Source: Sphaerochaeta associata (lineage in GTDB: Bacteria > Spirochaetota > Spirochaetia > Sphaerochaetales > Sphaerochaetaceae). From it: DNA of 64,000 nt. Location of the stretch: contig NZ_CP094929.1 in the NCBI RefSeq assembly GCF_022869165.1, forward strand, positions 1,488,001-1,552,000, written 5' to 3'. Each line of letters opens with the position of its first letter. Positions within the stretch are counted from its first letter, which is position 1. Below, piece after piece: positions 44,830-56,969 of this stretch. The notes under the pieces are model-generated. The model searched no databases. It was given only the letters and a program-made list of their open reading frames with translations, and was not told the DNA's origin. A program made the translations under genes and the position numbers.

Positions 44830-45729
44830 ATGGGCAACTCCTCCAATGTCCTCCTGATTGAAGATTATACCGACTATCTAGGCATGCAGCGTCGCCTTTC
44901 GGAGGCGACGCAGTCTGTATACGCACATGAGGTCTCTCTTTTTTTGGCTACAAGCGTCGACTATGAGACGGTGAATGTAAGATGCATCGAGGCGTATCTT
45001 GTTGAGCAGGTACGGATTCGCCATTTGAGTGAACGCAGCGTTGCAAAGGTCGTCTCTGCGTTGCGGTCCTTTTTTTCGTTCCTGCAGTTGAGCAAGATCC
45101 GGGAGGACAACCCGGTTTTGCTTGTCCAGCGTGGCAGGCAACAGCAAACCCTTCCTCAGGTGGCGAGCATTGCACAAGTGGATGCACTGCTGGAGAGCAT
45201 CGACACCTCCGACTTATTGGGCTTTCGTGACCGAACGCTGTTTGAGCTCATCTATTCCTGCGGTTTGAGAATCAGCGAGGCCTGCGACCTTGAGGTTTCC
45301 GACTATCAAAAGACCAGTATCAGGGTTGTGGGAAAGCGTCATAAGATCCGTATCATTCCCGTCGGTGAGGTGGCGCGCAGCTGGATCGACGCCTATCTGA
45401 CGCAAGTACGTCAGGAACTTGTCGGCATGCGTGGTTCGACCAAGGCCTTGTTCGTTGGAAGGAGAGGTCGTAAACTGACCCGGCAGGCTGTGTACAAGCG
45501 TTTCATCGCTTATTGTGATGCCGGTGGCTTGGATGCCAAGGTGCATACCTTGCGACACAGCTTTGCAACCCATCTTTTGGAAGGTGGAGCCGACCTCAGA
45601 AGCGTGCAGGAGCTTTTGGGCCACAGCGACATCAAGACCACGCAAATCTACACCCATGTGGACACCAGGGTGTTGCAGAAGGCATATGAACAATTCCACC
45701 CCGATACCGAGGATGGGCAGCAGTCATGA
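44830..45729 (+). CDS. xerD: Tyrosine recombinase XerD/XerC type (first copy)
   Basis: A 299-residue recombinase with a SAM-like N-terminal core-binding domain and a catalytic domain with Arg147 (CGLRISEA), Lys169, His239, Arg242 (HTLRHSFATH), His265 and Tyr274. Resolves chromosome dimers at dif. It starts 2 nt after ftsZ with no good ribosome-binding site, suggesting coupling. XerC and XerD cannot be told apart by motif alone; the label is provisional. Confidence 0.88.
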   Translation: MGNSSNVLLIEDYTDYLGMQRRLSEATQSVYAHEVSLFLATSVDYETVNVRCIEAYLVEQVRIRHLSERSVAKVVSALRSFFSFLQLSKIREDNPVLLVQRGRQQQTLPQVASIAQVDALLESIDTSDLLGFRDRTLFELIYSCGLRISEACDLEVSDYQKTSIRVVGKRHKIRIIPVGEVARSWIDAYLTQVRQELVGMRGSTKALFVGRRGRKLTRQAVYKRFIAYCDAGGLDAKVHTLRHSFATHLLEGGADLRSVQELLGHSDIKTTQIYTHVDTRVLQKAYEQFHPDTEDGQQS

Positions 45730-46501: not shown

Positions 46502-47362
46502 ATGAAACTCTCAACACTTCTTTCAATCAGTCAGCTTTCGATCGGGGCCGAGGAGAAGCTCGGTCTTGCTTACAGCAATCCATCTGCAAATGAATTGATA
46601 TCACTCGGTGCGAATGCAAAAAGAACCGAGCGGATGCTCGCCTTCCTGGCCCATGGCGGCGCCCGTGTTGTCTTTTACGGGATGGCTTCCTACCCCGCAC
46701 CCTTGTATCAACTGGACAATCCTCCCTTCCGTCTCATGTACAAAGGAGACCTGCCGAAACAAACGGACCGGTTTCTGATGGTATGCGGCACCCGTTGTCC
46801 CGATGCACTTGCAAGCCGGAGTTCCTATGAGTTTGCACTTGAAGCGGGAGCGAACGGGGTGGTTGTGGTTACCAGCAACAGCCGGGGCATCGACCGCAAC
46901 TGCCTGTATGCCCTCAAGGACAGCAACAAGGCGGCACTTGTGGTTTGTGACTGCGGGCTGGCAGTCAAACGCATCACCTCCAACACCCTGCTTGCCGGTT
47001 TTTGCACGATTTCCGCTTTTGAGCCTGATGATCAGGCCCTTTCCTTCCGATGCCTCAGCCGCAATGTTCTCTCGACCGCCCTGGCCGAGGCGACGGTGGT
47101 GATGCAGGCACCGCTCAAATCGGGGGCGCTGCACTGTGCGACCTGTGCCCTCGACCTCGGCAGGGATGTCTATGTGCACAGCACGGGAACGCGAACAGGT
47201 GAAGTCAATACCGGTTCCCGCTCGCTTGCAGAAATGGGCGCTGAAGTGGTAACGGGATATCCGGATGTGGCTCTCAGGCACGATTGGCCGCAGGACAGGC
47301 GAATCCAAGCCGGCTCATTGTACCGTTTCGGGCCCTCATGCTATAGTCTAAGCCATGCATGA
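46502..47362 (+). CDS. dprA: DprA/Smf-like protein, diverged
   Basis: A 286-residue protein. YPAPLYQLDNPPFRLMYKGDLP matches the entry to the DprA Rossmann fold; SNSRGIDRNCLYALK corresponds to SGLARGID-x-AAH; SRNVLSTALAEATVVMQAPLKSGAL to the RNRxIAGLS...EA...SGSL segment; and LGRDVYVHSTGT to the GR-x-V-AVPG end. DprA loads RecA onto incoming single-stranded DNA. Key motifs are looser than usual, and the usual C-terminal winged helix is absent. GGAGG is only 1 nt before the ATG, and no other in-frame start fits. Confidence 0.75.
   Translation: MKLSTLLSISQLSIGAEEKLGLAYSNPSANELISLGANAKRTERMLAFLAHGGARVVFYGMASYPAPLYQLDNPPFRLMYKGDLPKQTDRFLMVCGTRCPDALASRSSYEFALEAGANGVVVVTSNSRGIDRNCLYALKDSNKAALVVCDCGLAVKRITSNTLLAGFCTISAFEPDDQALSFRCLSRNVLSTALAEATVVMQAPLKSGALHCATCALDLGRDVYVHSTGTRTGEVNTGSRSLAEMGAEVVTGYPDVALRHDWPQDRRIQAGSLYRFGPSCYSLSHA
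47318..47347 (+). promoter_or_regulatory. Internal promoter before xerC, predicted leaderless
   Basis: TTGTAC (47318-47323), 18-bp spacer, TATAGT (47342-47347) preceded by TGC (extended -10). The ATG follows after 7 nt and there is no Shine-Dalgarno sequence. It lies within the 3' end of dprA. Confidence 0.55.
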
Positions 47363-48251
47363 AGAGCCTTTGATTGCAACATTTCTGCAGACACAGAAGA
47401 GTTTGAGAAACCTCAGTGATCATACCCTGCTTGCCTATGAGCGGGACTTATTACAGCTGCAAGCCTATTTTGCGTCCTTGGGCGTCTCGCTCTTGCACAG
47501 CACCCGCGAGGATGCCCGTATGTTTGTGCGTCATTTGGTCAAGGACAAGCAGTATGCGCAGGCGAGCATCAACCGCAAGATCAGCTGCGCCCGGGTTTTC
47601 TACTCCTCGTTGCTCAAGAACGAGCTCATTGCCTCCAACCCTTTCTCCCTGATAGCGGTACACCGTCGTCAGGACAGGCTTCCTTCAGTCCTTACCGCTG
47701 CCGAGGTAGCTTCACTGCTCTCTCTGCCCTATGCTGATTTTCCCTCAACCCGCGATATGGTGGTGTTTACGCTGCTCTACGATACCGGTTGCCGCATCAG
47801 CGAACTGCTCTCGATCAAGGAGAAGGACATTGAGTGGGAAGAGCGGCGGATTCGTGTAGTAGGGAAAGGAAACAAAGAGCGATATGTCTTTTTCACCGAG
47901 CGTTGCAAGGTGTTGATGACATACTATCTGCAGTTGAAGCGGGAGCGTTTTTCCTGCCCTGAACTGCTCTGCTCGAACAAAGGAAAACAGTTGCCGATGA
48001 GCACCGTTGGTAGTATGTTTGCTGTGTATAGAAGAAGACTCGGGTGGCAGAAACCATTTACCCCTCATGTATTGAGGCACACCTATGCCACCCATCTTTT
48101 GGACAATGGGGCTGATATACGTTTGGTGCAGGAGCTGCTGGGTCATCAAAGCATCTCGACAACACAGATTTATACCCACGTATCACAAGAGAGGTTGGCC
48201 CGCGTCTATGCATGCAGCCACCCTCATGGAAGGAAACAGGATGAGCACTAG
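47355..48251 (+). CDS. xerC: Tyrosine recombinase XerC/XerD type (second copy)
   Basis: A 298-residue recombinase with Arg147 (GCRISEL), Lys171, His238, Arg241 ([11 protein letters not shown]), His264 and Tyr273. It resembles the other Xer protein of this run and would form the heterotetramer with it. It overlaps dprA by 8 nt and hslV by 11 nt. The dprA-xerC-hslV-hslU order recalls the codV-clp/hsl arrangement in other bacteria and spirochaetes. Confidence 0.88.
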
Positions 48252-48780
48252 TTTTAAAGGAACCACAATCGTAGCAGTCCGCAAGGACGGTCATGTAGCA
48301 ATAGCAGGCGATGGGCAGGTAACCGCCGGCGATACCATTCTCAAGTCGAATGCGCACAAGGTGCGCACCCTCTATGATGGCAAGGTAATCACCGGTTTCG
48401 CCGGCACCACAGCCGATGCCTTCACGCTCTTCGAGTTGTTTGAAGCGAAATTGAAACAGTTCAACGGCGACCTTACCCGGGCGGCGGTGGAACTGGCCAA
48501 ACAGTGGAGAGTCGACAAGCAGCTGCGCCAGCTCGAGGCCATGATGCTGGTCAGCGACGGCAAGCGAATTTTCTTGATCAACGGGGCGGGTGATGTAGTG
48601 GATCCCGAGCGTGATGCCATCGGTATCGGCAGCGGCGGGAACTATGCACTCAGTGCAGCTTTGGCCTATTTGGATGCAAGCCCGACGATGAGTGCTGAGC
48701 AGATAGCACGCAAGAGTGTGGAGATTGCAGCAAAGCTGTGCATCTACACCGATGATTCAATTCATGTAGAGGTATTATAA
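48241..48780 (+). CDS. hslV: ATP-dependent protease subunit HslV
   Basis: A 179-residue proteasome-like threonine peptidase. [21 protein letters not shown] is the start of the mature fold. The catalytic threonine is normally the first residue; here MSTSFKG precedes TTIV, so a short leader must be removed, as in several other bacterial HslV proteins. AAGGAAACAGG precedes the ATG, and translation overlaps the xerC end. HslU follows after 3 nt. Confidence 0.93.
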
Positions 48781-48783
48781 TTT

Positions 48784-50163
48784 ATGGTATATACAGCAAG
48801 CAGGAAGCTTGACGAACTCAAACCTTCCGAGATAGTAAAGGAACTGGATAAATATATAATCGGCCAGAAGCAGGCAAAACGGACCATTGCGGTTGCCATC
48901 CGCAACAGGACCCGCCGCAAACGGCTGCCACTGGAAATCCGTGATGAGGTTTCTCCGAAAAACATCATTATGATCGGTCCCACCGGTGTGGGTAAGACTG
49001 AAATAGCCCGCCGTATCGCAAAGCTTTCCAACGCCCCCTTCATAAAAGTGGAAGCAACCAAATACACCGAAGTCGGGTATGTCGGACGGGATGTGGAGTC
49101 GATCATCCGTGATTTGATGAGCATCGCCGTACAGCAGGTGAAAGCCGAGCTTGCCGAACGAGAGCAGGAAAAGGTTGTCACCAGGGTGGAGGATCGTTTG
49201 TTGGATATTCTTCTGCCGCAGGTTAAGGAAGATCATTCGGTGGACATAATTCCGGTGGGCAGCACGTACAGCGACAGCCAGAAGGCAACCCGTGAAAGAT
49301 TTCGGCAGATGCTGCGCGACGGCAAGTTCGACGAGCGTGAGGTAGAGATCAATGTCCAGAGCCGCAAGCGTGTCGGCATCGAAGTGCTTGGACAACCAAA
49401 CATGGAGGAGTTGCAGGAGGCGATGCAGAGCATCGGTTCCATTTTCGGCAACGGTAAAGGCCACAACCGCAAGCTGACGGTCAAACGCGCCCGCGAAATT
49501 TTCACCGAGGAAGAGACGGACAAGGCGGTTGACACCGACCGCGCCATCGATGAGGCGAAGGAACGGGTCGAGCAGATGGGTATCGTATTCATCGATGAAA
49601 TCGACAAGGTTGCCAAGGGCGGCGGCTCGGGCGGCGGCATCGATGTCTCCCGTGAAGGGGTGCAGCGTGACATTCTTCCCATCATTGAAGGAACCAGCGT
49701 ATCCACCAAGTGGGGCGTCATAGACACCACGCACATCCTGTTCATTGCCAGCGGAGCATTCCATGTCTCAAAACCCAGCGACCTGATACCCGAGCTGCAG
49801 GGACGTTTTCCGCTGCGCGTGGAGCTTGACGACCTGAAGGCCGAGGATTTCTACCGAATACTGACCGAACCGGCAAATGCCATTACGATGCAATATCGTG
49901 AACTGCTCAAGACCGAGGGTGTTCAGATCATCTTTGAGGATGATGCCATCAGAAGAATCAGTGAGATTGCCTATGAGGTGAACTCAAATCATGATAATAT
50001 TGGAGCCCGAAGACTGTTCACCATTATGGAAAAACTGCTTGAGGAGTTGAGCTTCAGCGCAGATGAACTCAGCGGTCAGACCATTCCCATCACCCAGGCA
50101 TATGTGGATGAACGCCTTGGTGATGTAATCCAGAATCAGGATCTCTCGAAGTTCATCCTGTAG
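48784..50163 (+). CDS. hslU: HslUV unfoldase HslU
   Basis: A 459-residue AAA+ ATPase that feeds substrates to HslV. Walker A is GPTGVGKTE, Walker B IVFIDEIDKVA, with the I-domain between them (about 105-240), a GYVGRD pore loop, and the C-terminal LSKFIL tail that docks in HslV. The stop codon overlaps the TAGGAG site of the flhF-like gene. Confidence 0.96.
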   Translation: MVYTASRKLDELKPSEIVKELDKYIIGQKQAKRTIAVAIRNRTRRKRLPLEIRDEVSPKNIIMIGPTGVGKTEIARRIAKLSNAPFIKVEATKYTEVGYVGRDVESIIRDLMSIAVQQVKAELAEREQEKVVTRVEDRLLDILLPQVKEDHSVDIIPVGSTYSDSQKATRERFRQMLRDGKFDEREVEINVQSRKRVGIEVLGQPNMEELQEAMQSIGSIFGNGKGHNRKLTVKRAREIFTEEETDKAVDTDRAIDEAKERVEQMGIVFIDEIDKVAKGGGSGGGIDVSREGVQRDILPIIEGTSVSTKWGVIDTTHILFIASGAFHVSKPSDLIPELQGRFPLRVELDDLKAEDFYRILTEPANAITMQYRELLKTEGVQIIFEDDAIRRISEIAYEVNSNHDNIGARRLFTIMEKLLEELSFSADELSGQTIPITQAYVDERLGDVIQNQDLSKFIL

Positions 50164-50171
50164 GAGCGCAT

Positions 50172-51182
50172 TTGGAATTTCTGAGTCTTGAAGCAAGTGA
50201 TTATGAAAGCGCACTCAGGCAGGCCCGTAGCGAATACGGGAATGCCGTGCGCATTCATACACGAAAGGATTTCACCAAGGCTTCGATGCTTTCTAAACAA
50301 AAACGCTGCAAGATCACCTTTTATCTGGTGGAATCGAAACCCCCGGTTTCGGTGGTTGAAGAAGACCCTGGGCGGATTGAAGTCTTCGATGCTGATGCCT
50401 ACATGCAGGAGCTGCTCGTTTCCAATGATGTACCTTCTTCACTACATGCAGAGGCCAAGCAATTATTGGTTGCCGACAAGGGTGAGCATTCCCGCGCGGA
50501 GGTTGAGATAGCCCTGCTGCAATACCTGTTCGACGGAGTGCAGTTCGAGGAGGAAATAAGCTCACGGTATGCTGTTTTCGTCGGAGCTGCAGGAGTGGGG
50601 AAAACCACCATATCGATCAAGACAGCCCTGCATCTGCGCTCTCAGAAGGCAAAAAAGGTTGCGTTGTTGAGTCTGGATACCAATCGCGTCGGCTCACTCG
50701 GTCACATCAGGCAGTTAAGCCGTGAGTTTGCGCTCCCCTTGTTTGAAGCCTCACATGAAAAAGCATTGTCTGAATTGCTGCCTTCGCTCGAATCGTTCGA
50801 CCATGTTCTGGTCGACACCTGCTCATTCAGTGCAAAGTATGAGGAAATGAAGCCCATCCAGGATGCGATGCTGGCACTGCTTGGTGAAAAGGAGTGCAGC
50901 ACCTATCTGGTATTGAGCGCTACGTTCAAGGAAAGCGATTTGGCGGCCCAGCTGCAGATCTTCTCCCCGTTGCACATCCGAGCCGGCATCTGTACAAAGC
51001 TTGATGAGACCAGAGGCATCGGCACCTTGTTGGGTTTTACGCGCAAATCGAATCTGCCGTTGCTCTTTCTCTCCGACGGACAAACCATTCCTGACGATTT
51101 GCACATTGCATCGGCTTCCCATCTGATGAAATGCCTGCAAGGCTTCAGCCTCGATGTAACCCAATTTTTTCCATCAGCCTAG
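50172..51182 (+). CDS. flhF: FlhF-like SRP-family GTPase, diverged
   Basis: A 336-residue protein with FlhF organisation: an N-terminal segment (ASDYESALRQARSEYGNAVRIHTRKDF), a helical N domain (about 80-125) and an SRP-type G domain with P-loop GAAGVGKT (138-145), DTNR (169-172) and TKLDET (275-280). G3 is DTCS (215-218) rather than DTAGR. FlhF normally places flagella at cell poles, yet no flagellar gene is present. The TTG start at 50172 follows TAGGAG by 6 nt, 8 nt after hslU. The end overlaps the convergent PBP gene by 4 nt. A simple SRP54/FtsY is excluded by length and N-terminal region. Confidence 0.8.
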   Translation: MEFLSLEASDYESALRQARSEYGNAVRIHTRKDFTKASMLSKQKRCKITFYLVESKPPVSVVEEDPGRIEVFDADAYMQELLVSNDVPSSLHAEAKQLLVADKGEHSRAEVEIALLQYLFDGVQFEEEISSRYAVFVGAAGVGKTTISIKTALHLRSQKAKKVALLSLDTNRVGSLGHIRQLSREFALPLFEASHEKALSELLPSLESFDHVLVDTCSFSAKYEEMKPIQDAMLALLGEKECSTYLVLSATFKESDLAAQLQIFSPLHIRAGICTKLDETRGIGTLLGFTRKSNLPLLFLSDGQTIPDDLHIASASHLMKCLQGFSLDVTQFFPSA

Positions 51183-52846
51183 CGAACTTCCGTATCCTTG
51201 GCTTTCAGCTTGCCCTGGCTTACCAGCGACTGCACCAGGTTTGCGACGGCAGGGGCGGCGATGTTCGAACCCCAGATGGTATCCCCCTTGGGATTACCCG
51301 CTCCGATATAGATGATGTACTTTGGATTGTCGATGGGCACCATTGCAAGGGTTGAAGCCAAAACTGTTCCATCCTCATAGCTGTTGGTAAGCGGATTAAG
51401 AATCTGGGCTGTTCCGGTCTTCACTCCCACATCGACGCCGGCGACTCGGGCACGTACCCCGGTACCGCCATCCTCGGTTGCCATAAGCATACCGCTTCGA
51501 ATGAGGCTTGTGGTTTCGCTGTCCAATACTGATTGAATCACCACCCGCTCGCGTTCATACAGAATGCTTCCGTCAACGGGGGAAGTACGTCTGAGAATGA
51601 GATTGGGTTGCAAGAGTTCTCCTGAAGGGCATAAGGCTGTGGCTGCGGTTGCAAGATGAAGGGCCGAAGTGAGGAGTTCCTGTCCAAAGGAAATGGTTGC
51701 CTGCGATCGGCCGGACCATGTGGAGGGTGGGGCGATCTGGGAGCGGGCTCGGGATGGAAGACCGATATCATAGGAGCTATTGAAGCCAAAACTTGTAAGT
51801 ATGTCATAAAAAGCCTTTGCATCCGTCTGAAGGGCCCAGTGAACGATCGCCCCGTTGCAGGATTTACTGATCATCGTCCGCTCATCCACCTCACCGTGGA
51901 CAGCAGTGCAATTGACGGTGATTCTGCTTGCTCCGGCTTGGAAGGTATAACTGCCGTCGCAATCGAATGTTTCAGAGGTCTGCGCCTGGCCGGCTTTGAG
52001 CACCGCCGCCAAGCTGAAGAGCTTGAAGACCGAGCCCGGCTCGTAGAGAAGATTTACCGCATTGTTTCTTCGTTGCTCCATCTTCGAAGCCGAAAGATTG
52101 TTGATGTCGTACCAGGGATAGCTTCCCATGCCCAGGATATCGGCGTTGACAGCATCGAGAACGATCGCCATCGCATAATCGGGGTTGTGTTGGTCGGCAA
52201 TCTGCTGCAATTGGACATCCAATGCATATTGGATGTCCAAATCGAGAGTGAGTGTGATGTCCTGCCCATAGGTCACGGGAGCAGTGCCGATTTCGGGGTA
52301 GGGATTCAGATGAGCCTCCTCACTGAGCTCGATTCCCTCGATGCCGTATCCCTCTGTATTGGTGAAACCGATGATCTGCGAAGCGTGGAATTGGGCGGGG
52401 TAGGTCCTTCCCATGCGTTTCTCGACATTCACCTGTCCTCTGAGGGAGTACTTTTGGATTGCATCCAGCAGCGGTTGGACCATCCGGTCATCGATGCGCT
52501 CCTTGATCTGGGCGTAGGTAGTGTACGACTGCGCCTTGTTTTGTATTTCCTGGGGGTTCATCTGCACGAAAGGGGCTATGACTTCACTTACAAGCTGCAT
52601 GTCCTTGATGGCATTGAGATGGAGATAGACTCCCCAGTAGGGTGTCTGGATGGCGAGGATTCTTTGGTTTCTGTCATAGATGGTGCCTCTGACGACCTGC
52701 GAAGCAACCTGAGGATTGTTGTAAGATTTGCTCGTGTTTTGATTAAAAAGCATCAAAAAGCCCAACCTGAGCAGAAAAATTCCTAAAAATATGATACATA
52801 GAAGGCACAAGAGCCTGATATAGGAATGTTTTGGACTGGTAGCCAT
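51179..52846 (-). CDS. Class B penicillin-binding protein (FtsI/PBP2-like transpeptidase)
   Basis: A 555-residue bitopic protein: short cytoplasmic tail, transmembrane helix at about 11-33, dimerisation domain opening VVRGTIYDRNQRILA, then the transpeptidase domain. All three catalytic motifs are intact: Ser272-x-x-Lys275 (PGSVFKLF), Ser329-Cys-Asn331, and Lys476-Thr-Gly478. It forms peptide cross-links and would pair with FtsW. There are no PASTA repeats. No ribosome-binding site precedes the ATG; a -10 hexamer lies 6 nt upstream (predicted leaderless). Whether it is divisional or elongation-specific is not clear from sequence; being the only one near the division cluster suggests FtsI. Confidence 0.9.
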   Translation of the reverse strand: MATSPKHSYIRLLCLLCIIFLGIFLLRLGFLMLFNQNTSKSYNNPQVASQVVRGTIYDRNQRILAIQTPYWGVYLHLNAIKDMQLVSEVIAPFVQMNPQEIQNKAQSYTTYAQIKERIDDRMVQPLLDAIQKYSLRGQVNVEKRMGRTYPAQFHASQIIGFTNTEGYGIEGIELSEEAHLNPYPEIGTAPVTYGQDITLTLDLDIQYALDVQLQQIADQHNPDYAMAIVLDAVNADILGMGSYPWYDINNLSASKMEQRRNNAVNLLYEPGSVFKLFSLAAVLKAGQAQTSETFDCDGSYTFQAGASRITVNCTAVHGEVDERTMISKSCNGAIVHWALQTDAKAFYDILTSFGFNSSYDIGLPSRARSQIAPPSTWSGRSQATISFGQELLTSALHLATAATALCPSGELLQPNLILRRTSPVDGSILYERERVVIQSVLDSETTSLIRSGMLMATEDGGTGVRARVAGVDVGVKTGTAQILNPLTNSYEDGTVLASTLAMVPIDNPKYIIYIGAGNPKGDTIWGSNIAAPAVANLVQSLVSQGKLKAKDTEVR

Positions 52847-52887: not shown

Positions 52888-54006
52888 ATGGCAAAAGACT
52901 ATTATGACGATATGCAGGAGCGGCCTTCCTGGCGGTCACGGACAGAGGGGCAGCGGACAAAACCCAGCCGTGGTCTGATCTGGACCATTGCACTGGGGAT
53001 AGCCATCTGTGTGGTGGTAATAGTCATTTGGTATCAGTTCTTCCCGGCTCAGGAGAGCAGGACTGGTGAGAGCCCCAAGACCGTAGTCGAAGTGCTTCCT
53101 CAGGTAGAGAAAATCATCGATGCACCCCAGGTATCCGCAGTAGTCGCTCCTTCCACCGATGCTGCAGTTCCTTCCGCAACCACTTCTGTGGCCGATGCAG
53201 TGGTTCTCGACACCCAGGCCCGTTCACTTTCCGACCGGCCCGTCGTGGGGGGGCCGTCCAGCTCGGTAACCGTCCAATATGCAGATCACTTGGTTGCTTC
53301 GGGAGAGGACCTTGCCTCCATCGCAGCCTTGTACAATCTGAAGACCCAAACATTGATCAGTGTCAACCAGATTCGTAACATCCAGGCGATACGGGAAGGC
53401 GTTACGCTGCGGATTCCCGACCGTGACGGACAGTTGTACACCGTTCGCGAGGGGGATATGCTCTCCACCATTGCACGCAAATACAGTCCATCCCTGGGAT
53501 GGAAGACCCTGCAGGAGATCAACGGTCTCAAGAGCGAGAACATCCTTGTCGGCCAACAGCTGTTCATCCCTGATACTTCTTCAACCTCCACGAAACAACT
53601 TGCCGATGTAGCTCCGATTCAATTTCAGAAACCTGCCTCGGGTACAATCACCACGCTTTTCGGGCAACCATACACAAATCCGGCTACCGGAACCAGTGAA
53701 AGCATCGGCGGCATCCTGATCGTCGGTAACTGGGGTTCGGCGGTTGTCGCTTCGGCCGGCGGCCAGGTGGTCGATGCCGGTTATGAGGTGAAAGGCAGGG
53801 GTCGGTTCGTGGTGCTCAGCCATGAAGGTGGATACCGCACCAGCTACCATCATCTGGAGAATGTTGAGGTACGCATCGGCATGACGCTCTCCAAGGGTGA
53901 GACGATAGGAAGCATCGGTACCAGCGGCACCACCTATGAGCGGCCGACGCTCTTCTTCAGCATTGAGCAGTCGGGTATCGCCCTCGATCCAACACAGTTC
54001 TTCTAG
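52888..54006 (+). CDS. Membrane-anchored LysM protein with degenerate LytM (M23) domain
   Basis: A 372-residue protein: basic cytoplasmic tail, transmembrane helix about 29-49, a low-complexity linker rich in Val/Ala/Ser, two LysM peptidoglycan-binding domains (about 133-177 and 184-229), and a LytM/M23 fold (about 243-360). The zinc ligands of active M23 enzymes are missing: the HxGID histidine and aspartate correspond to GGILI, and HLHFE is TLFFS. It is thus probably a non-catalytic regulator, like EnvC or NlpD, which activate amidases at the septum. The site AAAGG is 12 nt from the ATG, so translation may be modest. Confidence 0.85.
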   Translation: MAKDYYDDMQERPSWRSRTEGQRTKPSRGLIWTIALGIAICVVVIVIWYQFFPAQESRTGESPKTVVEVLPQVEKIIDAPQVSAVVAPSTDAAVPSATTSVADAVVLDTQARSLSDRPVVGGPSSSVTVQYADHLVASGEDLASIAALYNLKTQTLISVNQIRNIQAIREGVTLRIPDRDGQLYTVREGDMLSTIARKYSPSLGWKTLQEINGLKSENILVGQQLFIPDTSSTSTKQLADVAPIQFQKPASGTITTLFGQPYTNPATGTSESIGGILIVGNWGSAVVASAGGQVVDAGYEVKGRGRFVVLSHEGGYRTSYHHLENVEVRIGMTLSKGETIGSIGTSGTTYERPTLFFSIEQSGIALDPTQFF

Positions 54007-54042: not shown

Positions 54043-56808
54043 TTACACATTCTTTCCATGACAGTGTTTGTATTTCTTGCCGCTGCCACAGGGGCACGGA
54101 TCGTTGCGTCCGACCTTCGGTTGGTCGCGTCGGATGGTGACCGCTGCGACATCGCCTCCTCCCTGTACACGCCTGGCCGGTTGGGATTCTGAAGCGAATG
54201 CTCCCTTTGCAGTGTGTGACTCTACCATTCTTGCTTTGCTGCTCGGTCTCTGGTAGGACTGTTCGGGTCGGGTGATCTGCACACGTACCAATGTCTGGGC
54301 CATGAAATGCTTGATGCCTTCGAGCATCTCATTGAAGATTTCAAAGCCTTCAACCTTGTACTCCACCAAAGGATTCTTCTGTGCATAGGAGCGCAGTCCT
54401 ACTGCATCCCTAAGATCCTCAAGGGTAGTCAGGTGATCCTGCCAGCGAAGATCGACCTGCCTGAGGTAGTTGAAGCGGAGGAAGTCGTTGAACGGTTTTT
54501 CACCGGTCAGTGCAACCTTTGAGTCGATTTCGGCATTGATACACTGAACCAGATGCTGCTTGTACTGTTCGCTTGTGGCTTTTGCATCCAGGACAGGAAC
54601 GGTGAGTTGGAAAGTGGTCAGCATCTCAGAGAGGATTTTTGTTCCTTTCTGGTCGTCCTTGGCATCGGCGAATACGGTATCGACGATTCCCGAGCTGATT
54701 TCATGACAGATACTCCTCACACGCTCAATAAGATGCTCGTCAGCCAGGATTGCATCGCGCTCGCCATACATGAAATTGCGTTGTTCGTTCAGTACATCGT
54801 CATAGTCGAGCAAGTGTTTTCTGATTTCGAAGTTTCGGTCTTCAACCCGTTTCTGGGCTTTCTCGATGGCATTGGAGAGCATTCGATGCTCGATCGGCTC
54901 CCCGTCCTGCATTCCGATTTTTCCCAGGATGTTTTTCAGGTTCTCCGAAGCGAAGAGTCTCATCAGGGGGTCGTCAAGCGATACAAAGAAACGGCTGGCA
55001 CCGGGGTCCCCTTGTCGGCCGCTTCGTCCTCTGAGCTGGTTGTCGATACGTCGTGATTCATGCCGCTCCGTTCCCAGGATATAAAGGCCGCCTAGTGACT
55101 TTACTTCTTCATAGTCCTTTTTCCAAGCAGGGAAAACCTGCTTGAGGGCGTCGGCGAACTCTTCGGGGGAAGCTTCCGTGCCGCATACTCTGCGTGCTCT
55201 CGCCTCAATGCTGCCCCCAAGCTTGATATCCGTACCACGGCCTGCCATGTTGGTGGCGATGGTGACCGCCCCCTTGGCACCGGCTTCCTCGATGATCATG
55301 GCTTCACGGGCATGGTTCTTGGCATTGAGCACCTCGTGCTTGATGCCCATGCGCCTAAGCAAAACTGAGAGCAGCTCGCTCTTTTCAATGCTGATGGTAC
55401 CCACAAGAATTGGTTGGCCGGTCTTGTGGACCTTTTCGATCTCCTCACAGATGGCCTTGAACTTGAACTGCTCGTTGTAGTAGACAAGGTCGGGGAAGTC
55501 TTTGCGGACCACAGGCTTGTTCGTAGGGATGACCACCACATCAAGATTGTAGATTTTCAAGAATTCCGGTGCTTCGGTGTCGGCGGTGCCGGTCATGCCG
55601 CTGATCTTGTCATACATGCGGAAGAAGTTCTGGAAGGTAATAGTGGCCAACGTCTTGTTCTGTCCGAGGATCTTGATTTTCTCCTTGGCTTCTATAGCCT
55701 GGTGCAGCCCGTCGCTGTACCGTCTGCCATGGAGGATACGGCCGGTGAACTCGTCGACAATCTGGACCTGGCCGTCGACCACCACGTAATCGACGTCATT
55801 GCGATAGAGTCTGAGCGCCTTCACCGCCTGGGTGACATAGTGAACGTATTCAAAGTTCTCATCGGCATAAATCGAACCGTTTATGACATGGTGCTTGTTC
55901 AGCAACTCTTCCATGTGCAGCATCCCTTGGTTGGTGAAGGAGACTTTCTTCTGTTTTTCATCAAGTTTGTAGTCGCCGCGCTCCTCAAAGGGCTTGGCGT
56001 TGCGGTCGAAGCGGGCAAGGGGGTCCTGCTCGTAGTAGTCACCGGTCTCGGGATCCTTCTCACACTCGACCAAGGAGGATGCGATTTTCGCAGCACCCAG
56101 TACCTGGGCCGAGTCGTCCTCGCTTTGGCCGCTGATGATCAAGGGGGTTCTGGCTTCGTCGATGAGAATCGAGTCGATTTCGTCGATGATGCAATAGTGA
56201 TGCTTGGGCTGGATTTTCTCCTCGGCCGACCACTTCATGTTGTCCCTGAGGTAGTCGAAGCCGAATTCGTTGTTCGTACCATACGTTACATCCCTGCTGT
56301 ATGCTCTTCGCTTGGCCTCATTGTCCATATCCGAGAGGATGACTCCCACCGAAAGCCCCAAAAACTCGTATATGGGTCCCATCCATGAAGCATCACGGCC
56401 TGCAAGGTAGTCGTTGACAGTGACGATATGCACCCCTTTCCCTTCAAGGGCGTTCAGATATGCTGCCGGAACGCAGGTGAGGGTCTTGCCTTCACCGGTT
56501 TTCATCTCCAGGATTTTTCCCTGATGGAGTACGACTGCTCCCATAATCTGTACATCATAGTGCCGCTCACCCAGAACACGCTTGGAGGCTTCCCTGGCCA
56601 GGGCGAAAGCCTTGGGCAGCAAACTCTCCAAGGAGGCTCCTTCTTCCAGTTGCTTCCTGAACTGTGCAGTTTGAATAGGGAATTGGTCATCGGACAACGC
56701 TGAAGCCCAAGACTCTTCCTTGTTTACCTGCTCCACGAAGGGAAGGAGTGATCGCAGGTCCTTGTCTTGCTTGGTTCCGAACAATTTGGTGAAAAATGAG
56801 GTGCCCAT
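54043..56808 (-). CDS. secA: Protein translocase ATPase SecA
   Basis: A 921-residue motor that pushes preproteins through Sec[12 protein letters not shown] is the Walker A region, [20 protein letters not shown] the DEAD-type Walker [11 protein letters not shown] and [10 protein letters not shown] the second motor domain, and [14 protein letters not shown] the C-terminal zinc tail for SecB or ribosome. The start at 56808 ([11 protein letters not shown]) fits the family; the in-frame ATG at 56874 lies upstream of the promoter -10. The ribosome-binding site is weak (GCGAGA). Confidence 0.96.
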
Positions 56809-56857
56809 GGATATCTCGCTTGCCGATAAAGATTGAGGAGCTTGGCCCCTCCTTCCT

Positions 56858-56863
56858 AGTATA
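56858..56863 (-). promoter_or_regulatory. -10 element of the secA promoter
   Basis: Minus-strand TATACT. No convincing -35 lies 16-18 bp upstream. The predicted leader of about 45-50 nt contains a small GGAG/CTCC hairpin near its start. Confidence 0.4.
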
Positions 56864-56969
56864 CTCATTCTCATGAGGCAAGAAAAGTGAAACCATGAGA
56901 AAAAGGTGGGCCAAATCTACCCGCACTGTATCAAGATGATACAAGTGACTAGCCGTTTCAAAGCTGTCA

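What the first reader, a model, noticed from the sequence alone, without database searches (positions are those of the whole stretch)
48784..51182. Scar of a lost flagellar operon: flhF joined directly to hslU
In Borrelia burgdorferi hslV-hslU are followed by the roughly 25-gene flgB operon that ends with flhA, flhF and an flhG-like gene. Here hslV-hslU are followed after 8 bp by an flhF-like gene, with nothing of flgB to flhA between. The simplest reading is one deletion removing the flagellar structural genes while leaving flhF under the upstream promoter. It would mark the molecular junction of motility loss and show that flhF outlived the flagellum, so it may have another role, for instance polar or septal localisation.
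Basis: partly seen in the sequence, partly recalled or inferred. Interest (0 to 1): 0.75.

Follow-up and report, generated by a model that had tools for sequence, protein, structure and literature searches.

The report
FlhF kept after flagellum loss
A group of non-swimming spirochaete relatives lost the flagellum genes that lay between hslU and flhF but kept the flagellum-placing protein FlhF under selection, and its small docking domain holds on even where its enzyme part decays, so it probably has a job unrelated to flagella.

Summary
In the window hslV, hslU and an FlhF-type gene follow each other (8 bp gap). In flagellated relatives hslU and flhF flank the flagellar operon, 8.6-24 kb apart (median 21.1 kb) in 77 of 78 same-contig, same-strand pairs. 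In the window's order fliF and flhA are absent from 139 of 139 genomes, yet FlhF or its N-terminal domain follows hslU in 76 of 80 loci read (median gap 10 bp). Three more families without flhA share the junction; some of their loci still hold flhG. The FlhF tree, and an rpoB tree without its fastest taxa, favour one ancestral loss. FlhF is under purifying selection (dN/dS 0.05-0.2 in 21 of 26 measurable pairs). GTPase motifs erode in several genera, the window's included, while the N-terminal domain stays mostly as conserved as before; in genus g14 only it is left. That domain matches the solved FliG-interacting domain (FID) of FlhF and is related to Jag_N. FlhF outlived the flagellum; FID-based docking or placement of an unknown partner is the likeliest remaining role. 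FliG was not searched genome-wide.

The parts
47355..48251 (+). xerC-type tyrosine recombinase, first gene of the conserved xerC-hslV-hslU block
   Evidence: NCBIfam TIGR02224 XerC 279.6 bits (below its cut-off 335.15), NF040815 XerA-type 231.7 bits (above its cut-off 220); a recombinase C-terminus precedes hslV in the flagellated loci L205 and L212 by eye
48253..48780 (+). hslV
   Evidence: NF003964 HslV 259.5 bits, cut-off 137
48784..50163 (+). hslU; left edge of the junction
   Evidence: TIGR00390 616.6 bits, cut-off 362.45
50164..50171 (+). 8-bp junction where flagellated relatives hold the flgB to flhA genes (hslU-flhF distance about 21 kb)
   Evidence: sequence; distances; gene order
50172..51182 (+). 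flhF, 336 aa, in a genome without fliF and flhA
   Evidence: dN/dS 0.188 and 0.115 against G101 and G091
50172..50336 (+). FlhF residues 1-55: FID / B domain (beta-alpha-beta-beta), the best-kept part in eroded relatives
   Evidence: AF2 mean pLDDT 86.1 for residues 1-62; best PDB match 9en1 FliG-interacting domain of FlhF; Jag_N relation by hhalign
50583..50609 (+). G1 / P-loop GAAGVGKTT, intact
   Evidence: alignment
50814..50831 (+). G3 motif DTCSFS in place of DTxG(K/R)S: glycine lost
   Evidence: relatives G101 DTCAFS, G091 DTSGRS
50994..51005 (+). G4 motif TKLD, intact
51179..52846 (-). convergent transpeptidase (PBP2/FtsI type); right border of the junction
   Evidence: PF00905 159.9 bits, PF03717 35.5 bits; a similar convergent ORF by eye in the f3, f4, f17 loci
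52888..54006 (+). LysM-M23 peptidase with a short N-terminal tail and a hydrophobic segment; conserved neighbour
   Evidence: PF01476, PF01551; similar ORF by eye in f3, f4, f17 loci
54043..56874 (-). secA, next conserved neighbour
   Evidence: named by eye from the translation (no family search run); similar ORF by eye in f3/f4/f17 loci

Best explanation
SHOWN: the locus is the old xerC-hslV-hslU-[flgB...flhA]-flhF-flhG line-up minus its flagellar core; the window's order lacks fliF and flhA, yet flhF stays behind hslU and is under purifying selection. SUPPORTED BY TREES: the core was lost once, before the split of four families, leaving flhF-flhG behind hslVU, and flhF was inherited vertically; flhG was lost later in several lines. 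SHOWN: within the family GTPase motifs erode in several genera (25 of 72 aligned proteins lack at least one of G1/G3/G4 by my rule, 3 of them only because the sequence is cut), whereas the first ~55 residues stay largely as conserved as in intact proteins, and in genus g14 nothing else is left. INFERRED: the selected function is a protein-docking one carried by the FID, the domain that binds FliG in flagellates (PMC11236974). With its flagellar client gone, the FID (a Jag_N relative) tethers or places another client, most likely at the cell pole or division site. The NG domain would be the landmark anchor, and its GTP cycle, no longer reset by FlhG, is dispensable. The partner is unknown; the PBP, LysM-M23 and HslUV neighbours are first candidates.
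For: Flagellated gene order hslU-flgB-flgC-fliE-fliF-...-flhB-flhA-flhF-flhG in f22 and f5 (eight genes of f22 checked with NCBIfam); 77 of 78 flagellated pairs 8.6-24 kb apart. fliF 0/139, flhA 0/139, FlgEFG 0/139 above cut-off, controls ringing in 4 of 14 named genomes. FlhF or FID next to hslU in 76 of 80 order loci, median gap 10 bp, and in 9 of 9 loci of f3/f4/f17, families in which 10 of 10 sampled genomes lack flhA. FlhG-like gene with DQAESLR (L145, L146, L153) or DQADTLR (L149) after flhF in 4 of those 9 loci. FlhF tree: 74 of 74 flagellum-less sequences together, support 1.0, none of 41 flagellated sequences (40 genomes) inside. rpoB, 35 taxa: the four families against all flagellates, SH-aLRT 99.7. 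dN/dS 0.042-0.329 in 25 of 26 pairs with measurable dS; the 26th (G099/G100) 0.466 at dS 0.009. Conservation in intact versus eroded proteins: residues 1-12 0.65/0.64, 13-24 0.64/0.65, 37-48 0.58/0.57, 49-60 0.53/0.54, but G1 block 0.77/0.61 and G2 block 0.71/0.38. G-domain dN/dS 0.057 in an intact g1 set, 0.122 in the window's clade, 0.099 in the G098 set, 0.190 in g13, while the FID has 0.131, 0.146, 0.133, 0.067. FID-only ORF of 60 codons in G083 and G084. Fold: 9en1 FID rank 1.
Against: No experiment and no partner. FlhF evolves several times faster than HslU. Two of 80 loci (G004, G006) lost flhF cleanly, so it is dispensable in at least one lineage. In intact proteins the FID is not more constrained than the G domain (0.131 against 0.057 in g1), one FID block (residues 25-36) does fall in eroded proteins (0.67 to 0.57), and the low g13 FID value rests on dS 3.5. 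The third g14 genome, G082, has only a 52-codon ORF from a TTG that would lack the first strand, which looks like decay. With all 40 taxa the rpoB tree puts the window's family with long-branched f19 at 52%; the five taxa were removed after seeing that. fliF was not searched in f3, f4, f17. FliG was not searched anywhere, so the FID could still have its old partner. Motif counts depend on an automatic alignment.
Confidence: 0.6

Rival explanations
1. Slow decay: flhF is a passenger of an important operon, kept because it is translated behind hslU, and is on its way out; the residual constraint only avoids harmful misfolding.
For: GTPase motifs erode in many genera; two species have lost the gene and G082 keeps only a start-less remnant; rates several times those of HslU.
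Against: The FlhF matches printed carry no internal stops; dN/dS is well below 1 even where G motifs are gone (0.084-0.111 in the three G098/G102/G104 pairs, 0.081, 0.185 and 0.256 in g13); four of five FID blocks keep their conservation; G083 and G084 keep the FID alone as an ATG-started ORF; the gene is behind hslU in 20 of 21 genera read and in three more families.
Confidence: 0.22
2. Flagellar genes were lost two or more times, with the same hslU-flhF junction formed in parallel in the window's family and in f3/f4/f17.
For: The 40-taxon rpoB tree does not join the two groups (window's family with f19 at 52%); a secA-like ORF also lies downstream of flhF in a flagellated f9 locus by eye, so the shared right-hand neighbours may be ancestral.
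Against: FlhF tree 74 of 74 together at 1.0; rpoB without five fast taxa 99.7; PMC12236494 (passages read) reports the five cultured non-spiral species as one clade.
Confidence: 0.15
3. FlhF in these cells acts as a third SRP-type GTPase in membrane protein insertion, helping FtsY/Ffh.
For: NG fold shared with Ffh and FtsY; G1, G3 and G4 intact in 47 of 72 family sequences and 9 of 9 in f3/f4/f17.
Against: The motifs needed for a GTPase cycle are lost in several genera, the window's included; [quoted passage not shown]
Confidence: 0.1

Closest known systems
FlhF of flagellated bacteria (B. subtilis 2px0; S. putrefaciens 8r9r and 9en1)
   Same: FID-linker-NG architecture, G1 and G4 motifs, position behind the hslU...flhA line-up
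   Different: no fliF or flhA in the genome, no FlhG-like gene, G3 glycine lost in the window; other genera have lost more GTPase motifs or the whole NG domain
hslVU-flgB operon of flagellated spirochaetes (read here in f22, f5; distances in 78 genomes); recalled: the codVWX-flgB fla/che region of B. subtilis
   Same: xerC-hslV-hslU upstream, flhF downstream
   Different: the two dozen or so genes flgB to flhA are missing
Jag_N domain (PF14804) of Jag/KhpB and FapA-type proteins; structure 3gku
   Same: beta-alpha-beta-beta module; local profile similarity 94.5% probability against at most 5.2% in 100 column shuffles
   Different: global hhalign gave only 33.4%; single FID sequences do not match Pfam Jag_N; no KH or R3H domain attached (recalled for Jag)
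Loss of motility in Sphaerochaeta and relatives as described in print
   Same: non-motile, non-spiral, almost no motility-category genes (PMC12236494, PMC11750108, passages read)
   Different: I found no mention of a retained FlhF in the searches listed; the 2012 Sphaerochaeta genome paper is not held and was not read

Membership tests
FlhF (SRP-type GTPase family) | NG GTPase domain of FlhF type | tested here: met
   PF00448 87.3 bits; 2px0 best fold match; groups inside FlhF tree
FlhF (SRP-type GTPase family) | TIGR03499 equivalog score above 174.15 bits | tested here: not met
   92.4 bits; only 1 of 139 order genomes reaches the cut-off, so the whole sub-family is diverged
FlhF (SRP-type GTPase family) | N-terminal B domain with FID | tested here: met
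   9en1 rank 1 by Foldseek (E 0.046; no match at E 0.001 or below) and by VIA (Z 6.7, 46 residues, 1.6 A)
FlhF (SRP-type GTPase family) | complete G1-G3-G4 motifs | tested here: not met
   window: G3 DTCSFS; 47 of 72 family members complete, 35 of 35 flagellated
FlhF (SRP-type GTPase family) | paired FlhG with DQAxxLR | tested here: not met
   135 of 139 order genomes give only weak matches to an f4 FlhG, best 49.1 bits; none beside flhF in the window; present in 4 of 9 f3/f4/f17 loci
flagellar biosynthesis operon | fliF, flhA, FlgEFG genes | tested here: not met
   0 of 139 each above cut-off, own genome included
flagellar biosynthesis operon | fliG (FID partner) | not tested
Jag_N domain family | Pfam PF14804 match | tested here: not met
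   no match for four FID sequences at E up to 10
Jag_N domain family | profile and fold similarity to Jag_N | tested here: met
   local hhalign 94.5%, score 37.2, against at most 15.7 in 100 shuffles and 16.8 reversed; global mode 33.4%; 3gku Z 6.0, tied with dodecins within 1 Z, so the fold match alone is weak

The most novel reading that the evidence does not exclude
FlhF's N-terminal FID is a Jag_N-type docking module with an ancient, flagellum-independent client in spirochaetes (for example a division or peptidoglycan protein, or HslUV itself). When the flagellum went, this older duty alone kept flhF; the GTPase became a pseudo-GTPase scaffold several times over and was finally discarded in one genus, leaving a 60-residue FID protein. 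Flagellar placement by FlhF would then be a recruitment of a general cell-placement system.
Probability: 0.28. Interest if true: 0.85.

Novelty: new variant of a known kind. Interest (0 to 1): 0.68.

Why it matters
How FlhF places flagella, and whether it does anything else, is open. Here a large natural set of genomes has removed the flagellum and kept FlhF, with a graded series from complete FlhF-FlhG pairs through orphan GTPases and pseudo-GTPases to a free-standing FID. It separates the part of FlhF that needs the GTP cycle from the part that does not, and makes a non-flagellar role directly testable in cultivable, harmless bacteria. It also fixes the gene junction left by flagellum loss in this branch of the spirochaetes.

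Tried and rejected
Rejected: the ORF as a third copy of Ffh or FtsY (fold and tree). Rejected: junction peculiar to this genome. Rejected: flhF next to hslU as the normal flagellated arrangement. Not settled: single loss with all taxa. The tally '139 of 139' is not a count of FlhF, because other SRP-type GTPases also match that model.

Rows dropped or chosen: from the FlhF trees seven sequences (G094, G096, G017, G018 as too eroded; G111, G127, G088 as cut by contig ends), and those under 200 aa; from the second rpoB tree the taxa f19, f21, f7, f20, f24, chosen after the 40-taxon result. G156 is in the 41 flagellated FlhF twice (L043, L214). Of 130 order genomes with an hslU match I read 80 besides the window (10 of the 48 genomes of genus g11). 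The 20 'eroded' and 49 'intact' sequences were sorted by me, and the window and G101 stand in the intact set there. A1 (17 rows), A2 (48 of 73 usable rows plus the window) and A3 (36 of 73 plus the window) were chosen by hand. In one search only rows printed were used: 126 genomes with both genes, 86 on one contig, 82 on the same strand, 4 of these flagellum-less. Of 33 pairs seven are saturated.

Papers: PMC12236494, PMC11750108, PMC3726837, PMC6282759, PMC12826062, PMC11236974: passages; PMC12713375: abstract and outline; all others: search listings. PMC3372971 is not held and was not read. That a retained FlhF is unreported rests only; that FID and Jag are not linked in print rests only (terms 'jag domain' and 'flhf').
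Full report
WHAT IS THERE. The window holds a xerC-type gene (47355-48251), hslV (48253-48780), hslU (48784-50163) and, 8 bp on, an FlhF-type gene (50172-51182), all on the + strand. The window lies in a single 3.55-Mb contig. The protein scores 92.4 bits with the FlhF equivalog model, under its cut-off of 174.15, but its fold model (pLDDT 91.3) matches B. subtilis FlhF best (2px0) and it falls inside FlhF in a tree. Two other strong PF00448 genes, presumably Ffh and FtsY, lie elsewhere.

THE ANCESTRAL LOCUS. In two flagellated relatives (f22, L205/L206; f5, L211/L212) xerC-hslV-hslU is followed by flgB, flgC, fliE, fliF, fliG, fliH, fliI, fliJ and on to fliP, fliQ, fliR, flhB, flhA, then flhF, flhG and fliA (by eye; in f22 FlgB, FliF, FlgE, FliM, FlhA, FlhF and FliA/WhiG were confirmed by NCBIfam and flhG is a MinD-type ATPase below the cut-offs that starts with DQAEQLR). 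In the class sample 126 genomes had both hslU and FlhF among the printed rows, 86 on one contig; of 78 flagellated same-strand pairs 77 are 8.6-24 kb apart, median 21.1 kb. Exceptions: G181 (far apart) and four with opposite strands (G161, G199, G281, G306). FlhA is present in 165 of 198 genomes of that sample.

THE LOSS. In the window's order (one family, 22 genera) fliF and flhA are found in 0 of 139 genomes and FlgE/F/G proteins in 0 of 139 above cut-off (2 of 139 sub-threshold); the same searches ring in E. coli, B. subtilis, Caulobacter and Thermotoga among 14 controls. hslU is found in 130 of 139 at E 1e-80. I read 80 of these loci besides the window: in 76 an FlhF-related ORF follows hslU on the same strand, median gap 10 bp, in 20 of 21 genera read. 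A few of the 76 are cut by contig ends (G030, G088, G111, G127, G135). The other four: G004 and G006 have lost the gene, hslU facing the PBP gene directly; G026 has another neighbour and an FlhF-model match on another contig; G137 has a strongly diverged FlhF-like ORF (68 bits in my iterated search) about 500 bp on, without a Pfam match. Three more families (f3, f4, f17), in which 10 of 10 sampled genomes lack flhA, have the same junction in 9 of 9 loci read; fliF was not searched there. In f4 (L146, L149) and part of f3 (L145, L153) flhF is followed by an FlhG-type ATPase that begins with DQAESLR or DQADTLR; in the other two f3 loci and the three f17 loci it is gone. In the window's order 135 of 139 genomes give only weak matches to an f4 FlhG, at most 49.1 bits. 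The f3/f4/f17 loci that reach far enough show the window's right border: convergent PBP, LysM-M23-like ORF, SecA (by eye; window PBP and LysM-M23 by Pfam).

ONE EVENT OR SEVERAL. The FlhF tree puts 74 of 74 sequences from flagellum-less genomes in one clade with support 1.0 and none of 41 flagellated ones inside. An rpoB tree of 40 taxa gives f3+f4+f17 at 100 but places the window's family with f19, the longest branch, at 52. After I removed five fast taxa on seeing this (35 taxa, 877 columns), the four families separate from all flagellates at SH-aLRT 99.7. PMC12236494 (passages) reports that cultured non-spiral spirochaetes form one clade and have almost no motility-category genes. I take one loss on the stem of the four families as the best reading. 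Whether it was one deletion or a quick series cannot be told.

SELECTION. Of 33 pairs, 26 have measurable dS. Pairwise NG86 dN/dS of flhF is 0.042-0.329 in 25 of these, 0.05-0.2 in 21, and 0.466 in G099/G100 at dS 0.009. HslU in the same pairs has 0.01-0.22 where measurable. So flhF is constrained, less than HslU.

WHAT IS CONSTRAINED. All 35 flagellated and all 9 f3/f4/f17 FlhF examined keep the G1, G3 and G4 motifs; in the window's family 47 of 72 do, and three of the other 25 are merely cut by contig ends. The window has lost the G3 glycine (DTCSFS), as G101 has (DTCAFS), while G091 keeps DTSGRS. Members of g3, g4, g7, g10, g13, g15 and g18 and part of g1 have lost G1, G3 or G4 residues, in several patterns. 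In C. jejuni a single change in G3 (T368A) already impairs the GTPase (PMC6282759, passages), so the window protein is probably hydrolysis-poor; this is inference. Against intact members, eroded ones show about equal conservation in residues 1-24 and 37-60 (0.65/0.64, 0.64/0.65, 0.58/0.57, 0.53/0.54), a fall at 25-36 (0.67 to 0.57), and larger falls in the G1 (0.77 to 0.61), G2 (0.71 to 0.38) and G3 (0.62 to 0.44) blocks. Per domain, G-domain dN/dS is 0.057 in an intact g1 set, 0.122 in the window's clade (G000, G101, G091), 0.099 in the G098 set and 0.190 in g13; the FID has 0.131, 0.146, 0.133 and 0.067, the last on a near-saturated dS of 3.5. So where motifs are gone the G domain is under weaker constraint than before, and the FID is not; in intact proteins the FID is not the more constrained part. 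In genus g14, 3 of 3 genomes have after hslU only FlhF's N-terminal stretch, then a stop and the PBP gene. G083 and G084 have an ATG-started ORF of 60 codons (dN/dS 0.12 between them); G082 has 52 codons from a TTG that would miss the first strand, and may be decaying.

WHAT THE SURVIVING PART IS. Residues 1-62 fold as beta-alpha-beta-beta (pLDDT 86.1). The best match among 350,542 PDB chains is 9en1, the FliG-interacting domain of S. putrefaciens FlhF (Foldseek rank 1 but E only 0.046; VIA Z 6.7, 1.6 A over 46 residues), next 3gku, titled a probable RNA-binding protein and recalled as a Jag protein, at Z 6.0, tied with dodecins. Local profile comparison with Jag_N domains gives 94.5% probability and score 37.2, against at most 15.7 in 100 column shuffles and 16.8 reversed; the global mode gave only 33.4%. 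So FID and Jag_N look homologous, although single FID sequences do not match Pfam Jag_N. [quoted passage not shown]

MOST LIKELY MECHANISM. FlhF is a tether: NG to a landmark, FID to a client. In this clade the flagellar client was lost, and a FID contact with another protein is what selection sees. The GTPase cycle, proposed to release the flagellar client under FlhG control, is no longer needed where FlhG is gone, which fits the apparent order of losses: core genes, then FlhG, then GTP motifs, then NG. The distribution supports that order (the FlhG-bearing and most FlhG-less proteins keep all motifs); client and landmark are inferred. The neighbours common to the loci are a PBP, a LysM-M23 protein with one hydrophobic segment and a short tail, and HslUV; HubP too is a LysM membrane protein (PMC11236974), which makes the LysM-M23 tail a candidate, no more. 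That protein stays in the two species that lost flhF, which is mild evidence against.

LIMITS. Many genomes are fragmented. Motif counts depend on a MAFFT alignment. dN/dS at dS above 1 is rough. No wet evidence exists. In the held library only one paper contains both Sphaerochaeta and FlhF, and there FlhF occurs only in the reference list.

VERDICT. The finding is stronger than claimed: a group-wide, selected retention of FlhF after flagellum loss, with the FID as the best-kept part.

Noticed in passing
window 52888-54006 and L068, L076, L089, L097, L103 and others: The LysM-M23 protein beside flhF starts with a short conserved motif around YDDM before a hydrophobic segment; a loose pattern found it in 30 of 89 loci, and many of the others may be too short to reach it. 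Function unknown; could be a docking peptide.
   Followed up: partly
L155, L156 (G146, G204), family f9: The hslU-flhF distance is only about 8.6 kb and the gene after hslU in L156 looks like fliF by eye: a compact flagellar operon, not examined further.
   Followed up: no
G161, G181, G281, G306 (family f24) and G199 (f26): hslU and flhF are on opposite strands or far apart, so the ancestral linkage is broken there although flhA is present.
   Followed up: no
class sample (60 genomes): 41 of 48 flagellated genomes have two Jag_N matches (in several the longer one lies just behind flhF, in a FapA/DUF342-type ORF), the 12 flagellum-less ones at most one, so the FapA-type gene appears to have gone with the flagellum.
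   Followed up: partly
G121 (genus g19 of the window's family): Neither hslU at E 1e-80 nor a clear FlhF match (best E 1.1e-4) in a 3.9-Mb genome at 86% completeness: possible loss of the whole block.
   Followed up: no
window 51179-52846: A PBP with transpeptidase and dimerisation domains, although Sphaerochaeta is remembered as lacking penicillin-binding proteins (recalled, paper not held).
   Followed up: no
window 44830-45729 and 47355-48251: Two XerC/XerD-type recombinases within 3 kb, near ftsZ and a dprA-type gene.
   Followed up: no
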